Positions 8,992-62,457 of a stretch of 64,000 nucleotides of DNA are shown piece after piece. Made by a program: the position numbers and the translations under genes. Under the pieces are notes generated by a model. That model was not told the origin of the DNA and searched no databases. It saw only the letters and a program-made list of their open reading frames with translations. Source of the DNA: Mesonia sp. HuA40 (GTDB taxonomy: Bacteria; Bacteroidota; Bacteroidia; Flavobacteriales; Flavobacteriaceae); assembly GCF_008017835.1 (NCBI RefSeq), contig NZ_VRLT01000059.1, positions 372,001 through 436,000 of the forward strand, given 5' to 3'. Each line of letters opens with the position of its first letter. The stretch's first letter is position 1.

Positions 8992-10176
8992 ATGAAAATC
9001 AACTATTTTATATATTTACTTGCAAGCCTTATCATAATGAGTTGTAGTGGCTTAAAAAAAACCGAAAAAGCCTTAAACAGTGGTAATTATGAGCAAGCCA
9101 TTTATATTGCCACTTCTAAATTGCAAAGAAATAAAGAAAAAAAATCGAATGAAGCTTACATAAAGTTATTAGAACAGGCGCATAAAAAGTTTGTTCAGGA
9201 GAAAGAAGCTCGATTAAAATTTTTAGAAAAAGATAGATTAGGCAATCATAAGGAAGAGATTTATGACAGTTACGCACAATTGAACGCTATACAAAATAAA
9301 ATTAAGGCGCTAACTCCATTATATTTTCAAAACGGAAAGACGGCAAAATTCTACTTCAAAGATTATACTAATGATATCATTAAGGCTAAAAACGAATACA
9401 TAGCCAATTTATACAGACAGTCGGAGGAATTGCTAAATGAAAGGCCAAAAGAATCGGCGCGACTGGCTTTTGAAAAATTACAGTTAATTAATCAATTGGC
9501 CCCAAATTATAAAAATACCATTGAATTATTGAATCAAGCCCATATTAAAGGTACCGATTTTATTTATTTGAGTGTTGAAAATCATAGCGATAAGGTAATC
9601 CCTAAAGCTCTAGAAAAAGATATTCTTAACTTTAGCGGATATGATTTAGATAATTTTTGGCAAAGTTACCATGCATACATTAATCCAGAAATTAACTACG
9701 ACTACGGAATTCATTTAGATTTTAAAACTATTGAAGTAAGTCCCGAGAAATTAAATGAAAGAGAAGAAGTAATACAAAAAGAAATCACAATACATAAGGG
9801 GTATCAAAAAGATAGAAATGGGAACTATATCTTGGACGACGAAGGAAATAAAATCGAATTGAACCAAACAAGAAATGTTAAAGCTAAACTACTAACTACC
9901 AATCAGTTTAAAGCTATTTATGTTAAGGGAAGGGTGGATTATTTAGATACCCAAACCAATCAAGTAATTCAATCGTTTCCTTTAGACACCGAATTTATTT
10001 TTGAAAACATTTTCACAAGATTTAATGGGGACAAGCGTGCACTTAGTAAAGAGCAATTGGCGCTAACTCAAAATAATTTTGTGGGTTTCCCTACGTCAGA
10101 GCAAATGCTTTTTGATGCAGCTACCAATATCAAAGAAAGGTTAGCTAGCATAATAAGGCAAAATCGGTTTAATTAA
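8992..10176 (+). CDS. Conserved flavobacterial lipoprotein of unknown function
   Basis: A protein of 394 residues with a lipoprotein signal ending in LIIMSCSG (Cys18), so it should be anchored to a membrane facing the periplasm or the surface. Residues about 25-180 are helical and Lys/Glu-rich with a TPR-like opening (EKALNSGNYEQAIYIATSKL). Residues about 190-390 look like an alpha/beta domain (FIYLSVENHSDKVIP...). I do not recognise a named family. Its stop overlaps the convergent YtxJ gene by 8 bases. No exact TAnnTTTG box precedes it; the 110-base gap from the sigma pseudogene holds only weak variants. Confidence 0.75.
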   Translation: MKINYFIYLLASLIIMSCSGLKKTEKALNSGNYEQAIYIATSKLQRNKEKKSNEAYIKLLEQAHKKFVQEKEARLKFLEKDRLGNHKEEIYDSYAQLNAIQNKIKALTPLYFQNGKTAKFYFKDYTNDIIKAKNEYIANLYRQSEELLNERPKESARLAFEKLQLINQLAPNYKNTIELLNQAHIKGTDFIYLSVENHSDKVIPKALEKDILNFSGYDLDNFWQSYHAYINPEINYDYGIHLDFKTIEVSPEKLNEREEVIQKEITIHKGYQKDRNGNYILDDEGNKIELNQTRNVKAKLLTTNQFKAIYVKGRVDYLDTQTNQVIQSFPLDTEFIFENIFTRFNGDKRALSKEQLALTQNNFVGFPTSEQMLFDAATNIKERLASIIRQNRFN

Positions 10177-10567
10177 TTAAATCAGCAACAACTTCAGCTT
10201 GAATTTCATGATGGGAGAAGTGTCCTATAATTTTTTGATTCTGGAGTATGATAATTTGGGGAGATTGATGGGTGACTTGAAACTTTTCTGCGATTAGATT
10301 AGAGACTTCACGGTATTGAATTAAATCTAAAAAAAAGAAAGCAACTTGACTGTTGTCAAAATCAGCTTCAGCTTCAAAACGGTTCAAAGCCATCCTACTT
10401 ACAGGACACCTTGTTGAATGTTTAAAAACAATTGCCGTTTGCCTTTTAGATGTCTCTAGTATAGTTTCTACATCATTTACTTTCTTTACCTCTAGCCAAT
10501 CTATAGATTTTTTAGGTGTTTTTGAGGTATCTTCATCCGCTTTTAAAAATTTATCGAAAAATCCCAT
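10169..10567 (-). CDS. ytxJ: YtxJ-like bacillithiol-system redox protein
   Basis: A cytoplasmic protein of 132 residues with a thioredoxin-like fold. The motif FKHSTRCPVSRMAL carries a single Cys54 in the place of the usual CxxC, as in the monothiol YtxJ family linked to bacillithiol chemistry in Bacillus and Bacteroidota. The cis-Pro loop is the QSPQIIIL segment. The family is thought to reduce mixed disulfides with bacillithiol, though its exact reaction is not settled. The gene ends inside the last codons of the convergent lipoprotein gene (8-base overlap). Confidence 0.88.
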   Translation of the reverse strand: MGFFDKFLKADEDTSKTPKKSIDWLEVKKVNDVETILETSKRQTAIVFKHSTRCPVSRMALNRFEAEADFDNSQVAFFFLDLIQYREVSNLIAEKFQVTHQSPQIIILQNQKIIGHFSHHEIQAEVVADLIN

Positions 10568-10646
10568 AGTTAAATTTTAAAGGTAAATTTACAAAATAAA
10601 TAAGAGAAGTTGTAGTTGCGCTAAGAAAAAGAACCATGCATAAATT

Positions 10647-10856
10647 TTAGGGCTTTCTTAACACTGCCCTTCTTAAATCAACACTAGTATAAACAGAAGT
10701 ACGATAATAAACTATTAAACAGCTTTCGGTTTGTTTGATTTGCTCAACTACATTATTTATTGACTCACCATCTAATTTTTTGATAATCTTATTTGTAGAA
10801 ACAGATAAGTTTAGCACAACAATAAGCAAAACAAGCATAACCTTAACAAGAGACAT
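10647..10856 (-). CDS. Possible small exported protein
   Basis: A 69-codon open frame with a credible signal peptide (VKVMLVLLIVVLNLSVS) and then a Lys/Glu-rich stretch with one Cys. No family is recognised and no exact promoter box lies upstream. It could be a remnant of a longer gene. It sits in the otherwise empty 450-base gap between ytxJ and clpB. Confidence 0.25.
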   Translation of the reverse strand: MSLVKVMLVLLIVVLNLSVSTNKIIKKLDGESINNVVEQIKQTESCLIVYYRTSVYTSVDLRRAVLRKP

Positions 10857-10960
10857 ACAACTTTTTTTGCTAAATTAGTAACAAAGCGGTTGGTTTACCA
10901 TACCCATAACCGGGTATATTTACGTCATTTTGTCATTAAATCAAAATAAAAAACTGACTT

Positions 10961-10992
10961 TTTGTCTTGATTTCGTTAAGGCATGAAATTTG
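10961..10992 (+). promoter_or_regulatory. Probable clpB promoter
   Basis: TTTG at 10961-10964 is followed after 20 bases by GAAATTTG at 10985-10992, one step from the TAnnTTTG consensus, and the clpB ATG is 24 bases further on. No CIRCE inverted repeat is present, so HrcA control is not indicated. Confidence 0.4.
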
Positions 10993-11016
10993 TAAATTCA
11001 AATAAAAATTAAAATT

Positions 11017-13611
11017 ATGAATCTAAACAATTTTACAATAAAATCGCAAGAAGCCATACAACAGGCACAGCAACTTGCACATCAATTGGGTCATCAACAA
11101 ATTGAAAACGAGCATATATTTAAAGGAATTTCTACTGTTGATGAAAATGTTACACCCTTTATTCTAAAAAAGCTAGGAATTAACTTGGTGCTGTTTAACC
11201 AATTATTAAACAAAATTCTAGAAAGTTTTGCCAAGGTAAGCGGTGGCGATATTATGCTATCGCGAGAGGCCTCTAGAAGTTTGACTGAAGCCCAGAGTTT
11301 GGCGAAGAAAATGAACGACGAGTATGTATCTATAGAGCACCTTATTTTAGCCATTTTCAAGTCGAATTCTAAAATTGCACAAATTTTAAAAGACCAAGGA
11401 GCTTCAGAAAAAGGTTTAAAATCTGCCATAGAAGAATTACGCCAAGGTGGACGCGTAACTTCACAAAGTGCCGAAGAAACCTATAATTCGCTTAATAAAT
11501 TCGCAAAAAATCTCAATGAGTTAGCCGAAACAGGAAAATTAGATCCCGTTATTGGGCGCGATGAGGAAATTCGCAGAATTTTGCAAATTCTTTCCAGAAG
11601 AACTAAAAATAATCCGATGCTAGTGGGAGAGCCTGGTACTGGTAAAACGGCCATTGCCGAAGGTTTAGCACATCGAATTGTAGCAGGCGATGTACCAGAA
11701 AATCTAAAAAATAAAATTATTTATTCTTTAGATATGGGCGCCTTAATAGCCGGAGCCAAGTATAAAGGAGAATTTGAAGAGCGACTCAAGGCAGTGATTA
11801 AAGAAGTAACTTCTAGCGATGGAAACATTGTGTTGTTCATAGACGAAATTCACACCTTAGTAGGAGCTGGTGGAGGCCAAGGTGCTATGGACGCTGCCAA
11901 CATCTTAAAACCAGCTTTAGCACGAGGCGAATTAAGAGCTATAGGGGCAACCACTCTAGATGAATACCAAAAATATTTTGAGCAAGACAAAGCATTAGAA
12001 AGAAGGTTTCAACGCGTTACAGTAGACGAACCCGATACAGAAAGTGCTATCTCAATACTACGGGGTATAAAAGAAAAGTATGAAACACACCATAAAGTAA
12101 GAATTAAAGACGAAGCTATTATAGCCGCGGTTGAATTGTCTCAACGCTATATCACCAATAGATTTTTACCCGATAAAGCTATTGATTTGATGGATGAAGC
12201 AGCCTCTAAGCTTAGAATGGAAATCAATTCTAAACCAGAAGAGTTAGATGTACTTGATCGTAAAATCATGCAACTAGAAATTGAAATAGAGGCCATTAAA
12301 CGCGAGAAAGATGAAGAAAAATTAAAATCGCTTAAAGCGGATTTAGCCAATCTTAAAGAAGAACGTAGCGAACTAAACGCTAAATGGCAAAACGAGAAAG
12401 GAATTGTAGATAACATTCAACAAGCTAAAACCGATATTGAGAATTTTAAATTAGAAGCAGAACGAGCGGAACGTGAAGGTGACTACGGAAAAGTTGCCGA
12501 GATACGCTATGGAAAAATTAAACAGGCACAAGAACAGCTTGATAAACTGCAAAAAGAAATGGCCGAACAAAAGGCACGAGGAGCCAAATCTCTAATACAA
12601 GAAGAGGTTACCAACGAGGATATTGCAGAAGTAGTTGCCAAATGGACTGGAATTCCAGTTACAAAAATGCTCCAAAGTGAACGCGAAAAACTATTATTAC
12701 TTGAAGAAGAACTTCATAAAAGAGTAGTTGGGCAAGAAGAAGCTATTCAAGCAGTTAGTGATGCTATAAGAAGAAGCAGAGCCGGTTTACAAGATCAAAA
12801 AAGGCCTATCGGGAGCTTCCTTTTCTTAGGTACCACAGGGGTTGGTAAAACAGAGTTAGCCAAGGCTTTGGCCGAGTATTTATTTAATGACGAGGCTGCC
12901 ATGACTAGAATAGATATGAGCGAATACCAAGAAAGACACGCCGTGAGTAGATTGGTTGGGGCACCTCCAGGCTATGTAGGCTATGATGAAGGAGGCCAAC
13001 TTACAGAAGCGGTAAGGCGTAAACCATACTCTGTGGTTTTATTAGATGAGATCGAAAAAGCACATCCTGATACATTCAATATTTTATTGCAAGTACTGGA
13101 TGAGGGCCGTTTGACTGATAATAAAGGAAGGTTAGCAGATTTTAGAAATACTATAATTATAATGACATCTAATATGGGTAGTCAAATTATTCAAGAAAAA
13201 TTTGAAGCTACCCAGAATATAGAATCTGCAACAGAAGCTGCTAAAATTGAAGTTCTTGGCCTTCTTAAACAGCAAGTAAGACCTGAGTTTTTAAATCGAA
13301 TTGATGATATTGTTATGTTTACACCGTTGACTGAACAAAACATCAAAGCTATTGTTGACTTACAATTAAAAGGCCTAAGTAAAATGCTGGCGCAGCAAAA
13401 CATTACCATTGATGCTACAGATGAGGCAATTAATTTGCTAGCTCAAAAAGGTTTTGACCCGCAATTTGGAGCAAGACCGGTGAAGAGAACCATTCAAAAA
13501 GAGGTTTTAAATACCCTATCAAAAGAGATTTTGGCAGGCAAAATAAGCCCAGAGAGTATTATATTAATCGATGCGTTTGACGACCAATTGGTCTTTAGAA
13601 ATAACGCTTAA
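11017..13611 (+). CDS. clpB: ATP-dependent chaperone ClpB
   Basis: The Hsp100 disaggregase, which works with DnaK to resolubilise aggregated proteins in the cytoplasm. It has 864 residues, the typical length. In order: N-terminal Clp repeat domain (about 1-150), first AAA+ domain with Walker A GEPGTGKT (204-211) and Walker B LFIDEIH, a coiled-coil middle domain (about 410-530, a feature of ClpB and not of ClpA/ClpC), second AAA+ domain with Walker A GTTGVGKT (605-612), and the C-terminal ARPVKR segment. The ClpP-binding loop is absent, as expected. It is a single-gene unit with a promoter candidate upstream and a strong terminator at 13634. Confidence 0.98.
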
Positions 13612-52288: not shown

Positions 52289-52385
52289 AAAATTAGCTCC
52301 TAAATTTAATAGGTTAAATAAATACAGAAAAGAGGCTCAAAACAAAATAATTCGTACTTTGTGAGTTATAAAATGCCTGTATTTG

Positions 52386-55300
52386 ATGGAATCAACTTTT
52401 ACAAGTTATGCCGAGCCTTTAAAGCCGCAAATTATAGCTATAGGAGCCAGTGCCGGTGGTCTCGAAACGCTACAAAATTTCTTTAGAAATCTTCCGAAAT
52501 CTGATATAAACGCCTATGTAATAATTCAGCATCTCTCCCCCAATTTTGAAAGTATGATGGCAGAGTTGCTAGAAAAATTCACCCATCTTACAATAAAAAA
52601 AATTGAAGATAAAGAATGTATAAAGCCTAAGCATATTTACCTCATCCCTCCACAAAATAACGCAGAGATTATAAACGGTTGTTTTAAGCTTTTAGCTAAA
52701 CCGAAGGGAAATACCATGAATTTCCCAATAGACATTTTTTTTAACTCCCTCGCGAAGTACAAAAAAGAAAAAGCAATTGGAATTATCCTAAGTGGAACGG
52801 GTAGTGATGGCACACGTGGCCTTAAATCCATAAAAGAAGGTGAAGGATTAATTATGGTTCAAGATCCTGAAGAAGCTAAATTCGATGGCATGCCAAGAAG
52901 TGCTATAAAGACTGGCTTAGCTGATTTTATTCTACCAGTAGATCAAATGGGACAAGAGCTTAGGCATTTCATTCAAAACAGTTTTGCAAACCCCTTATTG
53001 AAATATCAAGAAGTTGAATACGACAAGGAAGCTATAAAAGAAATTCTACATTTGGTAGATCAAAAAACACATTTAGATTTTTCTAATTATAAATATGCAA
53101 CGCTTTCAAGAAGGCTCATTAGAAGGTTCCAAGTTTGCAAGTGCAAGTCATTTCATGAGTACCTAAATTATGTAGAAGAAAACCAAGAGGAGTTACATTT
53201 ACTCGCTAGAGAATTCTTGATTGGAGTGACGGAATTTTTTAGAGACGAAGAAGTGTGGGTAAAATTGCAAGATGAAATTATACCTATGGTGGTTGCAAAA
53301 CTAAAACCACAAGACACTTTAAAAATTTGGGACATAGCTTGCAGCACTGGAGAAGAAACCTATTCGATTGCTATGCTCATAAACGAGGAGATTGAGCACC
53401 AAGAAAAAGATGTCAAAGTTAAAATTTTCGCTACAGATGTATCTCAGGAATTTTTAAATATTGCTAGTACAGGTGTTTATCCCGAAAGCATTGCCGCCGG
53501 AATTGACCCTTATTTATTGAATAAATATTTTACGCATACACATCAAGGTTATAGAGTGATTGAAAAAATTAGAAATCACATAATTTTCTCTCAACATAAT
53601 CTTTTAAAAAATCCCCCTTTCGGGCAAATGGAAATGGTTTTCTGTAGAAATTTACTTATCTATTTCCAGAATAAAATACAAAATCAAAGCCTAGATATTA
53701 TTCATTATTGTTTAAATAAAGAGGGGTTTTTAATCTTAGGCACAAGTGAAACCCTTCATTCTCATAATGAACACTTTAAATATGTTGATCGCAAATTAAG
53801 AATTTTTCAAAATCAAAATCCAACAGGAAGATTACAAAACACCCCTGATCTTAGGAACAATACTCAAAAAATGATTAAAACCACGCCCAAAAGTGATACT
53901 TCTATAATTCAGCATTCAACACGTAATAAAACTAAAAATAATTTACAGTTTTTAGATCTTTTCAATGAGTTGATTTTAGAACAATTCAACTCAGCCGCCG
54001 TATATATCGATGATGAATTTACTATCCTTCAAGGCATAGGAGATTTTAAGCGATATGCTCAATTACCCAAAAAAGGATTTAGCGTCAACCTATTAGATAT
54101 GTTGAATGATAGTCTTAAAAAGTTAATAAAATCTGGGGTGTATAAAGCTAGAAAAACCAGAGAAATGCAGCTATTTTCTCAATTGAAAGTAGGAGATTTA
54201 ACCGAGGATAAAACGGTGAAATTAATCATTAAACCTATAGAAAATCTAGAAGGTAACTCCTCTACTCATTTTATTATCTGCTTTGCTGAAGAGGAATTTG
54301 ATAAAAATCAAAAGGCTACTAGAATTGAAGTCAGCAACCAAACTGTTGAACAAGAATATATAAAGCAGTTAGAGGAAGAATTAAAAGATGTAAAACTTGA
54401 GCTTCAAACATCTTTATCTAATTTAGAGATTAGTAATGAAGAGCTTCAAGCCGCGAACGAAGAACTATTGGCTTCTAATGAGGAATTGCAAAGTACCAAT
54501 GAAGAATTGCAAAGCGTTAACGAGGAAATTAATACGGTAAATGCAGAAAATTTACAAAGGGTTGATGATCTCGAGCAACTAAATTCAGATATGAACAATT
54601 TACTAGAAAGCACCAATATAGGTACCATTTTTTTAGACAAAGAGTTATGTATCCGTAAATTCACACCTGCAATTAATAAACATTTTAATTTTATAGAAGG
54701 TGATATTGGACGTCCTATTCATCATTTTACTGGTGCTTTTAACAAACGATTCAAAAATAGAATTGTAGAAAAGTGTAAACACGTGTTGAAAAACGGTGGT
54801 GTAATCGAGAAAAAAATATTAACACAAGATGAGACAAATTATCTACAACGGGTTTCTCCATTCTTTGATTCTAATGGTAATAAAAATGGTGTAGTAATTA
54901 CTTATATTAACATAGAGTCTTTAGAAGAAGCTAAACGCAAACTAATGCTTAGCGAAAAAAGATTTAAATCATTTTACGAAGAAGACCCGGTAATGCATTT
55001 TAGTGTAGACCCAGTTACATCAAAAATAATTCATTGTAATCAAGAAGCTGCAGAAACCTTAGAATATGCTAGTAAGGAAGAATTAAAAAACATCAATTTC
55101 TTTAATCTTTACAAGAATAAGCAACAACTCAAGGCGCTTAAATTTGAAAAACTATTTAAAGAAGAAAGCCAGCTTAAAAATGTTGAGCTTGAAATATGTT
55201 CAAAAACAGGAAAAACCATTCCAATAATGCTTAATTTTACGGTAGAATATGATGAATTCGATAAGCCTATTCTTAACCGATTTACTTGTATAGATATAAC

Positions 55301-56027
55301 CGAACTTAAAAAAACACAAAAAGCCTTAAGCAAACAAAAGAAAAACCTAGAACGTACAAATAAAGATTTAGAGCAATTTGTGTCTATTTGCTCACATGAC
55401 TTACAAGAGCCTTTAGCCACAATTAAGTTTGCTAGCGATGTTATAAACAAAGTGTACGCTAAAGAATTAGATGAAAAAGCAAAAACCTATATTACCTATA
55501 TCGATCAAGCTTGCGACCGACTTTCAGAGCAGATCAAAGCATTGTTAGAACATTCTCGAATTGGTAGAAATTCTGAAAAAAAACTTATAGATACCCAAGA
55601 ACTGGTCGAAATTGTAAAATATGATTTGAGCAAGCGTATTAAAGAAACAAAGGCTAAGGTATTTGTAGGTGACTTACCAAAAATTAAGGGCTATGAGGTA
55701 GAGCTACGCCTACTTTTTCAAAATTTGTTAAGTAATGCGATAAAATATAAAGATAAAAATCGCGACCCAGAAATTAGAATTTCTTCTTATCAAGATGGTA
55801 AATACCACGTCTTTTCAATTACAGATAATGGAATTGGTATACCTAAAGAAAATCAAAAACAAATTTTTGATATTTTCAACCGTGTGCCTACAGAAGAAAA
55901 ATACGAAGGAACCGGCGTAGGATTAGCTCACGTAGAAAAAATCATTAGCTTGCATAAAGGTAGTATTTGGGTAGATTCTCAACCAGGTGCAGGTAGTACA
56001 TTTTATTTTAAATTGAAAGAAAAGTAA
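52386..56027 (+). CDS. CheB-CheR-PAS-histidine kinase fusion protein
   Basis: A 1213-residue signalling protein from the ATG at 52386 (an upstream TTG adds one residue). Domains in order: CheB methylesterase (1-190) with the triad Ser22, His49, Asp141; CheR methyltransferase (about 205-470) with the AdoMet motif WDIACSTGEETYSIAML; a heptad coiled coil built on NEELQ repeats (about 660-730); two PAS domains (about 735-845 and 855-970); HisKA with His1004 in CSHDLQEPL; and an HATPase domain with NLLSNAIKY, DNGIGIP and GTGVGL. There is no CheB receiver domain. No chemoreceptor gene is nearby, so the CheB/CheR substrate is unknown. A near-consensus TACTTTG at 52355-52361 may be its promoter. It ends in frame with, and directly abutting, the phytochrome gene. 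Confidence 0.93.
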   Translation: MESTFTSYAEPLKPQIIAIGASAGGLETLQNFFRNLPKSDINAYVIIQHLSPNFESMMAELLEKFTHLTIKKIEDKECIKPKHIYLIPPQNNAEIINGCFKLLAKPKGNTMNFPIDIFFNSLAKYKKEKAIGIILSGTGSDGTRGLKSIKEGEGLIMVQDPEEAKFDGMPRSAIKTGLADFILPVDQMGQELRHFIQNSFANPLLKYQEVEYDKEAIKEILHLVDQKTHLDFSNYKYATLSRRLIRRFQVCKCKSFHEYLNYVEENQEELHLLAREFLIGVTEFFRDEEVWVKLQDEIIPMVVAKLKPQDTLKIWDIACSTGEETYSIAMLINEEIEHQEKDVKVKIFATDVSQEFLNIASTGVYPESIAAGIDPYLLNKYFTHTHQGYRVIEKIRNHIIFSQHNLLKNPPFGQMEMVFCRNLLIYFQNKIQNQSLDIIHYCLNKEGFLILGTSETLHSHNEHFKYVDRKLRIFQNQNPTGRLQNTPDLRNNTQKMIKTTPKSDTSIIQHSTRNKTKNNLQFLDLFNELILEQFNSAAVYIDDEFTILQGIGDFKRYAQLPKKGFSVNLLDMLNDSLKKLIKSGVYKARKTREMQLFSQLKVGDLTEDKTVKLIIKPIENLEGNSSTHFIICFAEEEFDKNQKATRIEVSNQTVEQEYIKQLEEELKDVKLELQTSLSNLEISNEELQAANEELLASNEELQSTNEELQSVNEEINTVNAENLQRVDDLEQLNSDMNNLLESTNIGTIFLDKELCIRKFTPAINKHFNFIEGDIGRPIHHFTGAFNKRFKNRIVEKCKHVLKNGGVIEKKILTQDETNYLQRVSPFFDSNGNKNGVVITYINIESLEEAKRKLMLSEKRFKSFYEEDPVMHFSVDPVTSKIIHCNQEAAETLEYASKEELKNINFFNLYKNKQQLKALKFEKLFKEESQLKNVELEICSKTGKTIPIMLNFTVEYDEFDKPILNRFTCIDITELKKTQKALSKQKKNLERTNKDLEQFVSICSHDLQEPLATIKFASDVINKVYAKELDEKAKTYITYIDQACDRLSEQIKALLEHSRIGRNSEKKLIDTQELVEIVKYDLSKRIKETKAKVFVGDLPKIKGYEVELRLLFQNLLSNAIKYKDKNRDPEIRISSYQDGKYHVFSITDNGIGIPKENQKQIFDIFNRVPTEEKYEGTGVGLAHVEKIISLHKGSIWVDSQPGAGSTFYFKLKEK

Positions 56028-58217
56028 TTGAAAAAGGACAAAGACATTATTTTATCCAATTGTGATCGTGAGCCTATACATTTAATCAATCACATTCAGC
56101 CTTTTGGCACGCTGTTAGTTCTTGATAAAGAATCCTTAAAGGTAATTCAATGCGCAAAAAATGCATCGGAATACTTAGCCTTTATGGAATCATTTATCGG
56201 TAAAAAAATTAGCTTCTTAATAGGAAAAGAACTAGAGCAAAGCATTGCAAATTTTAATCTTGGCAGTAAAAATCGTCTTGAATTTAGTGGAAAAGTTAAT
56301 GCTACCCAATTTTCTTTTGTTGCTTATAAAACCAAACAAGGCATTTTACTTGAAGTAGAACGATTTACCATTTCAGACCCTATTGAGCTTCAAGATCAAT
56401 TAACTACCATAACAGAAGCTTTGGGTTCTTCAGATTCTGCACTTGAAGCATGCCAAAATGCCGCAAACATAGTTAGTAAAATATTTAATTACGATCGTGT
56501 ATTAGTGTACCGCTTTAATAAAGATTGGAATGGTGAAGTCATAGCAGAATGCAAACAAAAAAACCAAACAAGCTGGCTAGGATTACATTATCCTGCCACC
56601 GATATTCCTCAACCAGCAAGGGCTTTATTTTTAAAACAAAAAATACGCATAATTGCAGATGTAGACTATCAGCCCATTGCCATTACGCCCCAATTAAACC
56701 CTACAGATCAAAAAATAGTAGATCTCAGTAATTCAGAACTCAGAGGGGTTTCTCCAGTACATCTACAATACTTAAAAAATATGGGGGTAAATGCATCGCT
56801 TACTACCTCTATAATTATCGAAGGAAAATTATGGGGACTTATAACTTGTCATCACAGTGCTCCTAAATCTATAAACCGTACACAAAGGCAATTGTGCAGT
56901 ATATTGGTAGAAATATTTACGAATAAAATTAATAGCCTCAATTACAAAGCCGCTATAAAGGCCAACCAAGAAAGAAGTAAAATTGTAGAGCAATTAAAAT
57001 TTCAAATAGACCAGGAAAAAGATTGGTCAAATGCTTTTTTGAGTCAAGCTGATAATTTGTTAGATCTATTCAATGCCCAAGCTCTAATCATCCTGCAAAA
57101 AAATAGAACTCAAATCATTGGTGAAAAAATCAATAAAGATTTTCAAATTAGAATTTCACAATTTTTAAAGCATCAAAAATCGGGTAGAATTGTTTCTTCT
57201 AAATTGAGTTTAGATTATCCAAAATATTTTACAGCGGCTGATTCTTGGGCTGGACTTTTATCATTAAATTTGAATGGGGAGCAAAACAATACTATCGTTT
57301 GGCTTCGAAAAGAAAAAATACAACAAGTCAACTGGGGTGGTAAACCCAAGAAACCCGAAAAAATTATTGATGGTATTGCTTACTTAAACCCTAGAACTTC
57401 TTTCGCAAAATGGTCAAAACAGGTTAAAGGCCATAGCGAAGAATGGAGTGAAGAGAATTTGAAATCAATCAAAATCATCAAAGAGCTATTGCAAAATCAT
57501 TTGCTCCAACAGCAGCAAAATAAAATTAGAACGCTCAATAAAAGGTTAAAGCAAAACAACAAGGATCTCAAGGCATTTAGTTATAGCGTCTCTCACGATT
57601 TGCGCTCCCCTCTAAGGGGGATTGAAGGTTTTACTAATATGCTTTTAGAAAAACCCAAAATTGATGCGTCTACAAAACAAATCGGAAATAAAATACTGCA
57701 CTCTGTTGATTCAATGAACAATCTCATCGATGGCATTTTGAAATTGGCCACCCTCAACTTGAAGGAAATCAAAGGGCAAAACATCAAGGTGCGCGATTTA
57801 GTGCTGGGGTACCTAGAAGAGATCAATTTCTCAAATCAAGAAGGCATCCGCATTCAGATTGAAGAGGAAATTCCAGACCTTACTGGAGATTTCATTTTAA
57901 TTAAACAAGTCTTTACCAATTTAATTGATAATGCGTTAAAATATACCCAGCATAAAAAAGATGCCAAAATAGTTATTGGTTATTCACCACAAAAAAACGC
58001 CTACTTCGTAAAAGACAATGGTATTGGGATTCACCCTTCGGCGCAAAAGAAAATTTTTAAATTATTTCAGCGTTCTAGTGCGGCGCTCAAAAATTTTGAA
58101 GGGGAAGGAATTGGTTTAGCTCTTGTAAAGAAAATAGTAAAAAAGCATAATGGCAAAATATTCATCGATTCCGAGCTAGATAAGTATAGCATTTTTTATA
58201 TACAACTACCAAGCTAG
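56028..58217 (+). CDS. Bacteriophytochrome histidine kinase
   Basis: A red/far-red photoreceptor of 729 residues that uses biliverdin. The start is the TTG at 56028, immediately after the preceding TAA; no later start would keep the chromophore Cys12 in SNCDREPIH. Domains: PAS-like (12-110), GAF (about 125-300) with DIP (Asp192-Pro194), SPVHLQYL (His245) and CHH (274-276), PHY (about 315-490) with the tongue motif PRTSF (455-459), HisKA with His523 in SHDLRSPLR, and HATPase with Asn635, DNGIG and EGIGLAL. Every residue needed for biliverdin attachment and kinase activity appears present. A regulator and a heme oxygenase follow. Confidence 0.95.
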   Translation: MKKDKDIILSNCDREPIHLINHIQPFGTLLVLDKESLKVIQCAKNASEYLAFMESFIGKKISFLIGKELEQSIANFNLGSKNRLEFSGKVNATQFSFVAYKTKQGILLEVERFTISDPIELQDQLTTITEALGSSDSALEACQNAANIVSKIFNYDRVLVYRFNKDWNGEVIAECKQKNQTSWLGLHYPATDIPQPARALFLKQKIRIIADVDYQPIAITPQLNPTDQKIVDLSNSELRGVSPVHLQYLKNMGVNASLTTSIIIEGKLWGLITCHHSAPKSINRTQRQLCSILVEIFTNKINSLNYKAAIKANQERSKIVEQLKFQIDQEKDWSNAFLSQADNLLDLFNAQALIILQKNRTQIIGEKINKDFQIRISQFLKHQKSGRIVSSKLSLDYPKYFTAADSWAGLLSLNLNGEQNNTIVWLRKEKIQQVNWGGKPKKPEKIIDGIAYLNPRTSFAKWSKQVKGHSEEWSEENLKSIKIIKELLQNHLLQQQQNKIRTLNKRLKQNNKDLKAFSYSVSHDLRSPLRGIEGFTNMLLEKPKIDASTKQIGNKILHSVDSMNNLIDGILKLATLNLKEIKGQNIKVRDLVLGYLEEINFSNQEGIRIQIEEEIPDLTGDFILIKQVFTNLIDNALKYTQHKKDAKIVIGYSPQKNAYFVKDNGIGIHPSAQKKIFKLFQRSSAALKNFEGEGIGLALVKKIVKKHNGKIFIDSELDKYSIFYIQLPS

Positions 58218-58229
58218 CTAATATTACTT

Positions 58230-58237
58230 TATATTTG
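58230..58237 (+). promoter_or_regulatory. -7 promoter box of the regulator-heme oxygenase pair (TATATTTG)
   Basis: An exact TAnnTTTG, 19 bases before the ATG at 58256. It would allow the regulator and heme oxygenase to be expressed apart from the two kinases. Confidence 0.5.
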
Positions 58238-58255
58238 TTTATAATTTGTTTTTAA

Positions 58256-58810
58256 ATGATAAATGAATCTTTTAGAATAGTCTTAATTGAGGATAATCCT
58301 ACCGATATTGAATTATTTAAATTTCAATTGGAAAAAGTTTTATCTGACTTTCAATTGGTACATACCGATAATTTGAAAGAATTTGAAAGAAGTCTTAAAG
58401 AATTTGTCCCCGATATAGTTTTTTCTGATTACAACCTACCAGATTGTACCGGTTTAGACGTACTGAGAAAAACTCAAGAAATCGATTCTGATATACCATT
58501 TTATTTTTTAACCGGAACTATAAACGATGAAGAACTGGCCGCAGAAACTATTTTGGCTGGAGCCGATGGCTATATTTTAAAAAAGCATTTACCTTATTTG
58601 AGTGAGAAATTAGCTCCGTTGTTCAAGCGTTTGTTATTTAATATGGAAGCGAAAGTAGAACTTAGGGAACGACAAAGAAATCAGAAAATTGCGATTAATA
58701 AAATCTACGATTATCTAGAAGAATTAAAATCAGATAATACAAATCATAAATCAAACATCAACAAAATAAAAGAAGAAATAGAAAAAGTAAATGATAACCA
58801 CTCGTCTTAA
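58256..58810 (+). CDS. Single-domain response regulator
   Basis: A receiver protein of 184 residues with no DNA-binding output. The acidic pair Glu12-Asp13, phosphoacceptor Asp58 (FSDYNLP), Thr86 (LTG) and Lys109 (ILKK) are in place, and a helical, charged tail (about 135-184) follows the receiver. It is of the Rcp/CheY-like type often paired with phytochromes and is the probable partner of the phytochrome kinase. Its last 20 bases overlap the heme oxygenase start, so the two are translationally coupled. Confidence 0.92.
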   Translation: MINESFRIVLIEDNPTDIELFKFQLEKVLSDFQLVHTDNLKEFERSLKEFVPDIVFSDYNLPDCTGLDVLRKTQEIDSDIPFYFLTGTINDEELAAETILAGADGYILKKHLPYLSEKLAPLFKRLLFNMEAKVELRERQRNQKIAINKIYDYLEELKSDNTNHKSNINKIKEEIEKVNDNHSS

Positions 58811-59336
58811 AGAAGAAACTAAAGAACTACATCAAGCCGTTGAAAACGAGAATCTAGCCTATAAAATTATAAATCATACTATTTCTGCTAAAGAATACCT
58901 TAATTTGTTGAAACAAAACTATGCAGCATATAGCAGTGTTGAAAAGGCTATATTAAAGCATGAAGAAAAGTACAAGCCTATAAAATTTGAACTTTTACTT
59001 AAAGATTTAAAGCAAGCTAATGCCAACATAGAAACCTTAAATTCTTCATTTAATTTAAAGAACAAAGACCAGAGTATAGGTGCTCAATACGTTATCAAGG
59101 GCTCAAGCCTTGGCGGTTCGTTTATTGCTAAGCAGATGCTAGATTGTCCCGAATTAAAACCTTTTTTACCAGCTTACTTTTTTAGCACCGATAAATCAGC
59201 TATTAAAGATTGGAACAAATTTACACGATTCTTAAAAGAAAATGAAGCTGCCTTGAACCACGATGAAGTAATTGTAGGGGCAAAGAATAGTTTTGAGCAT
59301 TTTTTAAAGATTTTCACTATCCCACAGATAAATTAA
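58791..59336 (+). CDS. bphO: Heme oxygenase (biliverdin-producing)
   Basis: A soluble all-helical enzyme of 181 residues that opens heme to biliverdin, the phytochrome chromophore. The proximal heme ligand His14 is in TKELHQAVE, and the distal-helix glycines are in GSSLGGS (104-110). Heme oxygenases next to phytochromes are named BphO; iron recovery from heme is the other possible role, but position and overlap with the regulator favour chromophore supply. It needs an external reductase, which is not encoded here as an intact gene. Confidence 0.9.
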   Translation: MITTRLKEETKELHQAVENENLAYKIINHTISAKEYLNLLKQNYAAYSSVEKAILKHEEKYKPIKFELLLKDLKQANANIETLNSSFNLKNKDQSIGAQYVIKGSSLGGSFIAKQMLDCPELKPFLPAYFFSTDKSAIKDWNKFTRFLKENEAALNHDEVIVGAKNSFEHFLKIFTIPQIN

Positions 59337-62091: not shown

Positions 62092-62457
62092 ATGGAAATA
62101 GCGATAATAGCACACGACGGAAAAAAAGCCGAAATGGTTCAATTTCTTAATGAACATGCCGATTTTTTCCATCAAGAACACATCAGTTTGGTTTCTACTG
62201 GTACTACCGGTAAAAAAGTTAAAAGGGCAGGATTTGAAGTATTGCGCTTACTTTCTGGTCCTCTTGGTGGAGATGCCCAAATCGCTGCCCGAGTAGCCGA
62301 GGGCAAATGTAATATGGTTCTCTTTTTTAGAGACCCCTTAGAGAAACACCCACATGAACCAGATGTATTGATGCTGCTACGCATTTGCGATGTGCACGAT
62401 GTACCACTGGCCAGTAATCCAGCAACTGCAACGCTTCTTATAAATGCTGTTAAATAA
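62092..62457 (+). CDS. mgsA: Methylglyoxal synthase
   Basis: Converts dihydroxyacetone phosphate to methylglyoxal and phosphate, a bypass of lower glycolysis. It has 121 residues, a little short of the E. coli enzyme (152) because the C-terminal tail is missing. Motifs: AHDGKK (7-12), the phosphate loop STGTTGKK, and the catalytic Asp61 in GPLGGDAQIAA; FFRDPLEKHPHEPDV is also characteristic. It starts one base after the preceding stop and is probably co-transcribed. Confidence 0.95.
   Translation: MEIAIIAHDGKKAEMVQFLNEHADFFHQEHISLVSTGTTGKKVKRAGFEVLRLLSGPLGGDAQIAARVAEGKCNMVLFFRDPLEKHPHEPDVLMLLRICDVHDVPLASNPATATLLINAVK

What the first reader, a model, noticed from the sequence alone, without database searches (positions are those of the whole stretch)
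52386..59336. Complete light-sensing module beside a CheB-CheR-kinase fusion
Four genes in a row encode a CheB-CheR-PAS-histidine kinase, a bacteriophytochrome kinase with intact Cys12, DIP, His245, CHH and PRTSF motifs, a lone receiver protein and a heme oxygenase. Phytochrome, regulator and BphO make a known self-sufficient unit. The unusual part is the addition of a kinase carrying CheB and CheR domains with no chemoreceptor, suggesting that light state could be joined to protein methylation. Flavobacteria glide and lack flagellar chemotaxis, so the target of CheB/CheR would be new.
Basis: partly seen in the sequence, partly recalled or inferred. Interest (0 to 1): 0.72.

Follow-up and report, generated by a model that had tools for sequence, protein, structure and literature searches.

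The report
Light-sensor operon with methylation-enzyme kinase
A red-light sensor, its pigment-making enzyme and its relay protein are kept in one gene row with an unusual kinase that carries the two enzymes of bacterial chemotaxis memory, in a bacterium with no recognisable chemotaxis receptor, which hints that such cells may adapt to light by chemically marking the kinase itself.

Summary
Four tightly spaced genes (52386-59336) encode a CheB-CheR-PAS histidine kinase (CheBR-HK), a bacteriophytochrome (BphP), a receiver (REC) and a heme oxygenase. Photoreceptor and enzyme residues are intact; the genome has no MCP or CheW match. The linkage is real: 13 of 19 phytochrome genomes among 299 of the family have this order. 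Of 40 further phytochrome genes, 4 lie beside a CheBR of another clade; two of these lack a kinase. Against: a nested clade keeps CheBR-HK without phytochrome, and no activity is shown. Best model (inferred): BphP and CheBR-HK meet at one receiver, and CheR/CheB reversibly methylate Glu-Glu heptads in CheBR-HK's own long helix, a light memory without chemoreceptors. The Glu pairs are more conserved than the coil's putative core, but kinases without CheB/CheR carry shorter runs. Ten full-text searches brought up no paper describing the pairing. New variant of a known kind.

The parts
52386..56027 (+). CheB-CheR_N-CheR-PAS-helix-PAS_10-PAS_9-HisKA-HATPase kinase (CheBR-HK); residue numbers in this report count from the TTG at 52383
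52434..52961 (+). CheB methylesterase domain; S23, H50, D142 present
   Evidence: catalytic roles recalled from CheB literature
53034..53792 (+). CheR_N and CheR SAM-binding methyltransferase domains; R287, D352, N423, Y427 conserved
   Evidence: roles recalled
53916..54293 (+). PAS-like fold not recognised by Pfam
   Evidence: AlphaFold model and Foldseek against PDB
54336..54614 (+). continuous 93-residue helix between two PAS folds
   Evidence: pLDDT about 80-94 over most of it
54438..54542 (+). five heptads EELQAAN-EELLASN-EELQSTN-EELQSVN-EEINTVN, resembling the MCP methylation consensus
   Evidence: consensus quoted in PMC8396549
54591..56021 (+). PAS_10, PAS_9, HisKA (SHDLQEPL) and HATPase_c of CheBR-HK
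56028..58217 (+). bacteriophytochrome BphP: PAS_2-GAF-PHY-HisKA-HATPase, Cys12, DIP, His245, CHH, PRTSF, SHDLRSPLR
58256..58810 (+). stand-alone receiver (REC) with a C-terminal extension; E12, D13, D58, T86, K109
58791..59336 (+). heme oxygenase (BphO type), H14 conserved in 22 of 22

Best explanation
This is a conserved four-gene light-signalling module. Shown: the genes, their intact motifs, their long-term linkage and co-inheritance. Inferred: HO makes biliverdin, BphP binds it through Cys12 and acts as an Agp1-like red/far-red-controlled kinase on REC. CheBR-HK is the second kinase of the node and, with Glu at H+4, may also remove phosphate from REC, so that REC~P reports the balance of light and of whatever CheBR-HK's PAS domains sense. 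CheR and CheB write and erase methyl esters on the Glu-Glu heptads of CheBR-HK's own helix between two PAS folds, shifting that kinase/phosphatase balance slowly, like receptor methylation in chemotaxis but within one receptor-free kinase. How likely each step is, in my judgement: functional linkage 0.9; two kinases sharing REC 0.55; methylation of the own helix (in cis or within the dimer) 0.35.
For: Linkage in 13 of 19 family genomes; reshuffled flanks; matching subclades in the CheBR and BphP trees and distance correlations of 0.77-0.94 between CheBR-HK and the other three proteins in 20 operons, with 0 of 999 permutations as high. Pairings in other CheBR clades: L051, L064+L069, L166. In L064 and L069 the phytochrome ends after PHY and the next gene is CheBR-HK, the nearest candidate output. 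H-box: BphP H+1 Asp 22/22 and H+4 Ala/Ser/Gly/Val 22/22; CheBR-HK H+1 Asp and H+4 Glu 22/22. In PMC8292422 (passages) H+1 Asp matters for Agp1 kinase activity and the H+4 Glu of DrBphP for its phosphatase activity. In two Aquimarina loci a kinase without CheB/CheR but also with H+4 Glu stands in the place of CheBR-HK. Enzyme residues conserved; dN/dS CheB 0.054, CheR 0.163, kinase 0.061. No MCP or CheW. Heptads: Glu pair entropy 0.10 and 0.06 bits against 0.38 and 1.02 for the putative core positions; the first three heptads fit Glx-Glx-x-x-[ASTG]-[ASTG] in 40, 43 and 37 of 43 rows. The 30 best linker matches in 247 genomes (the window's among them) all have a CheR domain in the 1.5 kb of flanking DNA.
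Against: Kinases without CheB/CheR also carry runs of 2-4 such heptads (L210, L211, L212, L219, L220, L222), and in L204 a separate 573-residue protein beside a CheBR carries three, so the motif is neither specific nor always in cis. The last two heptads fit in only 3 and 1 of 43 rows (mostly Val at the sixth position). Five orphan CheBR-HKs of the same clade live without the phytochrome. The H+4 contrast is confounded by descent: 8 of 34 BphPs without a CheBR neighbour also have Ser/Gly/Ala, from relatives of this BphP clade, and in PMC8292422 placing Glu at H+4 in Agp1 did not create phosphatase activity. By presence and absence REC travels with BphP, not with CheBR-HK, yet by distances REC follows CheBR-HK (0.94) more closely than BphP (0.68): the partners of REC are not settled. 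G548, the genome of L064, has another phytochrome with a kinase elsewhere (L063). No biochemical data.
Confidence: 0.4

Rival explanations
1. CheBR-HK belongs to the module, but its CheR/CheB domains modify other proteins in trans, for example other kinases with Glu-Glu coils; the light sensor only changes when this happens.
For: Glu-Glu heptad coils occur in kinases without CheB/CheR, and in L204 in a separate protein next to a CheBR. CheBR forms without a kinase domain exist next to a separate kinase (L055, L056, L060).
Against: The best matching coils lie with CheR: 30 of 30 top matches. The separate kinases of L055, L056 and L060 lack the heptads.
Confidence: 0.25
2. A plain two-kinase, one-receiver light switch: CheBR-HK matters only through its kinase/phosphatase domain, and CheB/CheR are scaffolding or sense SAM or a metabolite.
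For: In two Aquimarina loci a kinase without CheB/CheR takes the place of CheBR-HK in the operon. CheB and CheR are not needed to explain the H-box pattern.
Against: Active-site residues of both domains are kept in nearly all of 48 proteins and are under purifying selection.
Confidence: 0.2
3. CheBR-HK is a separate sensor that became co-transcribed with the phytochrome unit and was kept by synteny; no functional link.
For: Orphan CheBR-HKs without phytochrome; 36 of the 40 phytochrome genes examined outside the 13 operon genomes have no CheBR beside them.
Against: Flanking genes are reshuffled while the four stay together. Pairing recurs in four CheBR clades; 4 of 40 against 0.16-0.32 expected (rough Poisson on assumed gene numbers and distances, which ignores the general clustering of signalling genes). 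Kinase-less phytochromes beside CheBR-HK.
Confidence: 0.1

Closest known systems
BphO-BphP-response regulator operons (Deinococcus, Agrobacterium, Pseudomonas types)
   Same: Phytochrome kinase, receiver and heme oxygenase in one row. PMC2222644 (passages) notes bphP1 downstream of bphO in P. syringae, 'similar to other BphPs'; [quoted passage not shown]
   Different: Here a CheB-CheR-PAS kinase is the first gene of the unit. The BphP H-box is Agp1-like (H+1 Asp, H+4 Ser), not DrBphP-like.
CheB-CheR-PAS-histidine kinase fusions ('chemotaxis protein CheB', 'CheR family methyltransferase' in annotations)
   Same: Same domain order. Common: 362 of 72,556 plasmid records hold a place that covers at least 80% of the CheB-CheR query. 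PMC2890560 mentions a CheB-CheR hybrid and PMC4618731 lists CheB and methyltransferase domains among histidine kinase input domains (passages).
   Different: No passage that I read gives such a fusion a light-sensing partner or a methylation target.
Chemoreceptor adaptation system (MCP-CheR-CheB)
   Same: CheR and CheB domains; Glu-Glu-x-x-small-small heptads in a helix, consensus as quoted in PMC8396549.
   Different: No MCP or CheW match in this genome; enzymes and putative substrate are in one kinase; the CheB part has no receiver domain.
Sensory rhodopsin-transducer photosystems of haloarchaea
   Same: Light response that may be tuned by CheR/CheB methylation, as discussed in PMC5812497 (passages).
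   Different: Those use MCP-type transducers HtrI and HtrII and act on taxis.

Membership tests
Bacteriophytochrome (biliverdin-binding histidine kinase) | PAS-GAF-PHY core with N-terminal Cys, DIP, CHH and PRxSF, plus a histidine kinase | tested here: met
   the list of defining motifs is recalled
Bacteriophytochrome (biliverdin-binding histidine kinase) | Red/far-red photoconversion with biliverdin | not testable with these tools
   Needs spectra of the holoprotein
BphP-RR-BphO operon | Adjacent co-directional phytochrome, receiver and heme oxygenase genes | tested here: met
CheB-CheR-PAS-HK fusion family | CheB, CheR_N, CheR, PAS and HisKA-HATPase in one protein with intact enzyme residues | tested here: met
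   catalytic roles of the residues are recalled
Chemosensory pathway | MCP-type receptor in the genome | tested here: not met
   0 matches; the search rang in 7 of 14 control genomes
Chemosensory pathway | CheW coupling protein | tested here: not met
   0 matches; the search rang in 7 of 14 control genomes
Chemosensory pathway | CheA kinase | not tested
   No search was made for CheA
[quoted passage not shown]
   Sequence fit in the first three heptads, but the motif also occurs in kinases without CheB/CheR; methylation not testable
DrBphP-type light-activated phosphatase | H+1 not acidic, H+4 Glu/Gln in BphP | tested here: not met
   H+1 Asp, H+4 Ser in the window BphP; determinants from passages of PMC8292422
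CheR-TPR alternative-function pathway | TPR repeats fused to CheR | tested here: not met
   No TPR family in the Pfam scan at E 0.001

The most novel reading that the evidence does not exclude
CheBR-HK is a self-methylating, receptor-free memory kinase: CheR and CheB fused to it write and erase glutamyl methyl esters on its own PAS-coil-PAS helix, and together with the phytochrome it lets a bacterium without chemoreceptors adapt to the recent light level. The whole adaptation loop of chemotaxis would then be folded into one protein, of a class found in many Bacteroidota and, by plasmid matches, in Proteobacteria.
Probability: 0.25. Interest if true: 0.85.

Novelty: new variant of a known kind. 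Interest (0 to 1): 0.52.

Why it matters
CheB-CheR kinases are common, this genome has one without any MCP or CheW, and no passage I read states what such a protein modifies. This operon names a sensor (red light), a receiver and a specific, mappable set of glutamates, so the question 'what do receptor-less CheB/CheR modify' becomes a simple test with a clean, switchable input. If the own helix is the substrate, methylation-based adaptation would not need chemoreceptor arrays. It would also give a natural light-responsive kinase pair for the kinase-phosphatase balance studied with engineered phytochromes (abstract of PMC11164954).

Tried and rejected
(1) Glu-Glu heptads as a signature unique to CheB/CheR proteins: rejected, since kinases without these domains carry shorter runs. 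In 48 CheBR proteins the longest run was 6 in 27, 7 in 8, 5 in 3, 4 in 4, 3 in 3, 2 in 1 and 1 in 2. (2) BphP as a DrBphP-like pure phosphatase needing CheBR-HK as its kinase: not supported, since H+1 is Asp in 22 of 22 operon BphPs; the reverse division of labour fits better. (3) Replacement of the window's fast BphP: its stem is long (1.6 against 0.68 for CheBR-HK), but median distances of the window's proteins to the others are raised by about the same factor for all four genes (1.11-1.20), so the whole unit is fast in this lineage. (4) Sigma-70 promoter and terminator scan: no excess of promoter-like sites (25 found, 32.2 expected) and 8 terminator-like sites against 4.7 (sd 2.2) expected; not informative here. 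(5) Plasmid collection: the 60 listed rows of each search share, by eye, one record, with the two genes far apart; 74 and 567 further records were not listed. (6) Rhodopsin in the own genome: no match, but the control rang nowhere, so no conclusion. (7) A CheB gene near the phytochrome of Spirosoma utsteinense (L108) is a separate 199-residue CheB near a contig end. (8) Other phyla could not be sampled by whole genomes. The named scan kept the best 80 of 588 relatives; 24 of the 80 (my count from the titles) are not Bacteroidota, and none of these shows a CheBR in the DNA held. Literature: ten searches brought up no paper on the pairing, judged from the listed titles and from passages of eleven papers; several searches had more hits than were listed, one search returned mostly unrelated papers, and the library lacks most subscription journals.
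Full report
What is there. Pfam gives CheB, CheR_N, CheR, PAS_10, PAS_9, HisKA and HATPase_c for the first, PAS_2-GAF-PHY-HisKA-HATPase_c for the second, a receiver for the third and heme oxygenase for the fourth. From the coordinates the spacing is 0, 38 and -20 bases. The CheB triad residues S23, H50 and D142, and CheR residues including R287 and D352, are kept in nearly all of 48 aligned CheBR proteins (46 after leaving out two that are the same contigs as others); D142 is Glu in 3, and one row is gapped at S23 (the catalytic roles are recalled, not from a call). The phytochrome residues C12, DIP, H245, C274-H275 and P455-R456-S458-F459 are invariant over 16 proteins. Receiver D58, T86 and K109 and heme oxygenase H14 are invariant over 22. 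Between the window and its nearest relative (L021, same genus), dN/dS is 0.106 for CheBR-HK as a whole, 0.054 for CheB, 0.163 for CheR and 0.061 for the kinase.

An AlphaFold model of residues 470-745, built on 46 sequences, shows a PAS-like fold at about 512-637 followed by one helix at 652-744 with high confidence over most of its length (overall mean pLDDT 71, pTM 0.43). Foldseek's best PDB matches are mostly PAS and LOV domains. The helix carries five heptads beginning EE, at residues 686-720. The architecture is therefore CheB-CheR-PAS-helix-PAS-PAS-kinase.

Linkage. Among 299 genomes of the family, 19 have a phytochrome (20 genes) and 45 have a CheB domain (53 places). I looked at the neighbourhoods of all 20 phytochrome genes, the window's own and 19 others. 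Thirteen genomes, the window's included, show CheBR-HK > BphP > REC > HO on one strand, some with an extra gene between BphP and REC; one (G177, L051) has a CheBR of another clade in divergent orientation beside BphP-REC-HO; six phytochrome genes in five genomes have no CheBR beside them. A scan of named genomes kept the best 80 loci of 588. That leaves 22 non-redundant operons. Of 231 pairs among them, 167 share no flanking gene, and the window shares none with 19 of the other 21, so the unit is kept while its surroundings change. The CheBR tree (46 rows; quick method, SH-aLRT support only, some long branches flagged) places the 22 with five orphan CheBR-HKs in one clade with support 100. The BphP tree (60 rows, same method) shows corresponding subclades, with four loci lacking CheBR and L051 nested among the operon BphPs. 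Pairwise distances of CheBR-HK correlate with those of BphP, REC and HO at 0.77, 0.94 and 0.92 (20 operons, 0 of 999 permutations as high); shared descent alone can give this. BphP and REC correlate at 0.68.

Recurrence. In a phylum sample of 326 genomes, 30 have PHY matches (37 places). Three places were already in the family set, and 33 of the other 34 were inspected (the weak G527 place, below cut-off and with stops, was not; the weak G566 place, L172, was not recognised as a phytochrome by my protein comparison but is counted). Three have a CheBR neighbour: L064 and L069, where a phytochrome of 509 or 497 residues ends after PHY and is followed directly by a CheBR-HK of 1616 or 1513 residues, and L166, CheBR-HK > HO > BphP. 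With L051 that is 4 of 40 phytochrome places outside the 13 operon genomes, in three further CheBR clades; L064 and L069 are sisters in both trees and may be one event. A rough Poisson expectation is 0.16-0.32; it rests on assumed gene numbers and distances and ignores the general clustering of signalling genes. Against a strict tie, five orphan CheBR-HKs (L041-L045) nested in the operon clade have no phytochrome, receiver of this type or heme oxygenase nearby, and their genomes are absent from the list of PHY matches.

Who does what. The own genome has no MCP signal domain and no CheW, and a single CheB match. In the 22 operons the BphP H-box has Asp at H+1 and Ala (14), Ser (5), Gly (2) or Val (1) at H+4; CheBR-HK has Asp at H+1 and Glu at H+4 in 22 of 22. 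PMC8292422 (passages read) reports that changing Asp at H+1 inactivated Agp1, which has Ala at H+4, and that the H+4 Glu of DrBphP is important for its phosphatase activity. By that reading BphP is the light-controlled kinase and CheBR-HK a kinase with phosphatase capacity on the same receiver. In two Aquimarina loci a kinase without CheB/CheR stands in the same operon place and also has H+4 Glu. Among 34 BphPs without CheBR beside them (a selection of those fetched), 26 have Thr, Glu or Asn at H+4 and 8 have Ser, Gly or Ala; the 8 belong to relatives of this BphP clade, so descent explains much of the contrast. The paper also reports that adding Glu at H+4 to Agp1 did not give phosphatase activity, and that Thr or Asn at H+4 abolished it in DrBphP.

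Target of CheR and CheB. [quoted passage not shown] The heptads EELQAAN, EELLASN, EELQSTN, EELQSVN, EEINTVN resemble it. In 43 non-redundant CheBR rows the two Glu positions have entropies of 0.10 and 0.06 bits and the Asn 0.12, while the putative core positions have 0.38 (Leu) and 1.02; the first three heptads fit a relaxed consensus in 40, 43 and 37 rows, the last two in 3 and 1. A coil kept only for stability should conserve its core first, so the Glu pairs probably do something; which positions form the core is my assignment. Among 247 phylum genomes searched with this helix, 91 had a match, and the 30 best all have a CheR domain in the flanking 1.5 kb. I fetched 20 further stretches chosen mainly for short reading frames or weak scores. 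They include kinases without CheB/CheR that carry 2-4 consecutive heptads of the same kind (L210, L211, L212, L219, L220, L222), and a separate 573-residue protein with three heptads beside a CheBR (L204). The motif is thus found most strongly in, but not private to, CheB/CheR proteins, and methylation in trans remains possible.

Verdict. The parts are known kinds: bacteriophytochrome operons and CheB-CheR kinases. Their conserved and recurrent union, with kinase-less phytochromes in two genomes, is not described in any paper that my ten searches brought up, as far as listings and passages show. I read passages of PMC2890560, PMC2829493, PMC8396549, PMC5812497, PMC11832031, PMC5108060, PMC3447774, PMC4618731, PMC2222644, PMC12471899 and PMC8292422, and the abstract of PMC11164954; others were seen only as listings.

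Noticed in passing
L064:7740-14120 and L069:3774-9841: Phytochrome core of about 500 residues with no kinase, directly followed by a CheB-CheR-multi-PAS kinase: a natural split photoreceptor.
   Followed up: partly
L028:12038-12448, L031:5728-6138, L089:11986-12396, L114:12016-12426: A second receiver-like protein of 136 residues, Rcp1-like by eye (recalled), lies directly after BphP in these loci.
   Followed up: no
L026:5315-6205 and L084:12227-13108: A secreted-looking protein of 293-296 residues, by eye like a glycoside hydrolase (recalled, not tested), is inserted between BphP and REC in two Salegentibacter-type operons.
   Followed up: no
L155, about 9775-12020: The phytochrome of Salinimicrobium xinjiangense is interrupted or shortened (560 residues) although the rest of the operon is there.
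   Followed up: no
L040:6469-11271; window 62092-62457: A methylglyoxal synthase gene directly follows a CheBR-kinase in L040 and lies about 2.8 kb after the heme oxygenase gene in the window; possibly coincidence.
   Followed up: no
L210, L212, L219, L222: PAS kinases without CheB/CheR carry 3-4 Glu-Glu heptads like those of the CheB/CheR fusions; their genomes (G428, G436, G375) also have a CheB match. They could be trans substrates.
   Followed up: no
window 58256-58810: The receiver's best NCBIfam and PDB match is the receiver of Leptospira LvrB (below the NCBIfam cut-off), and the BphP's second-best NCBIfam match is LvrA.
   Followed up: no
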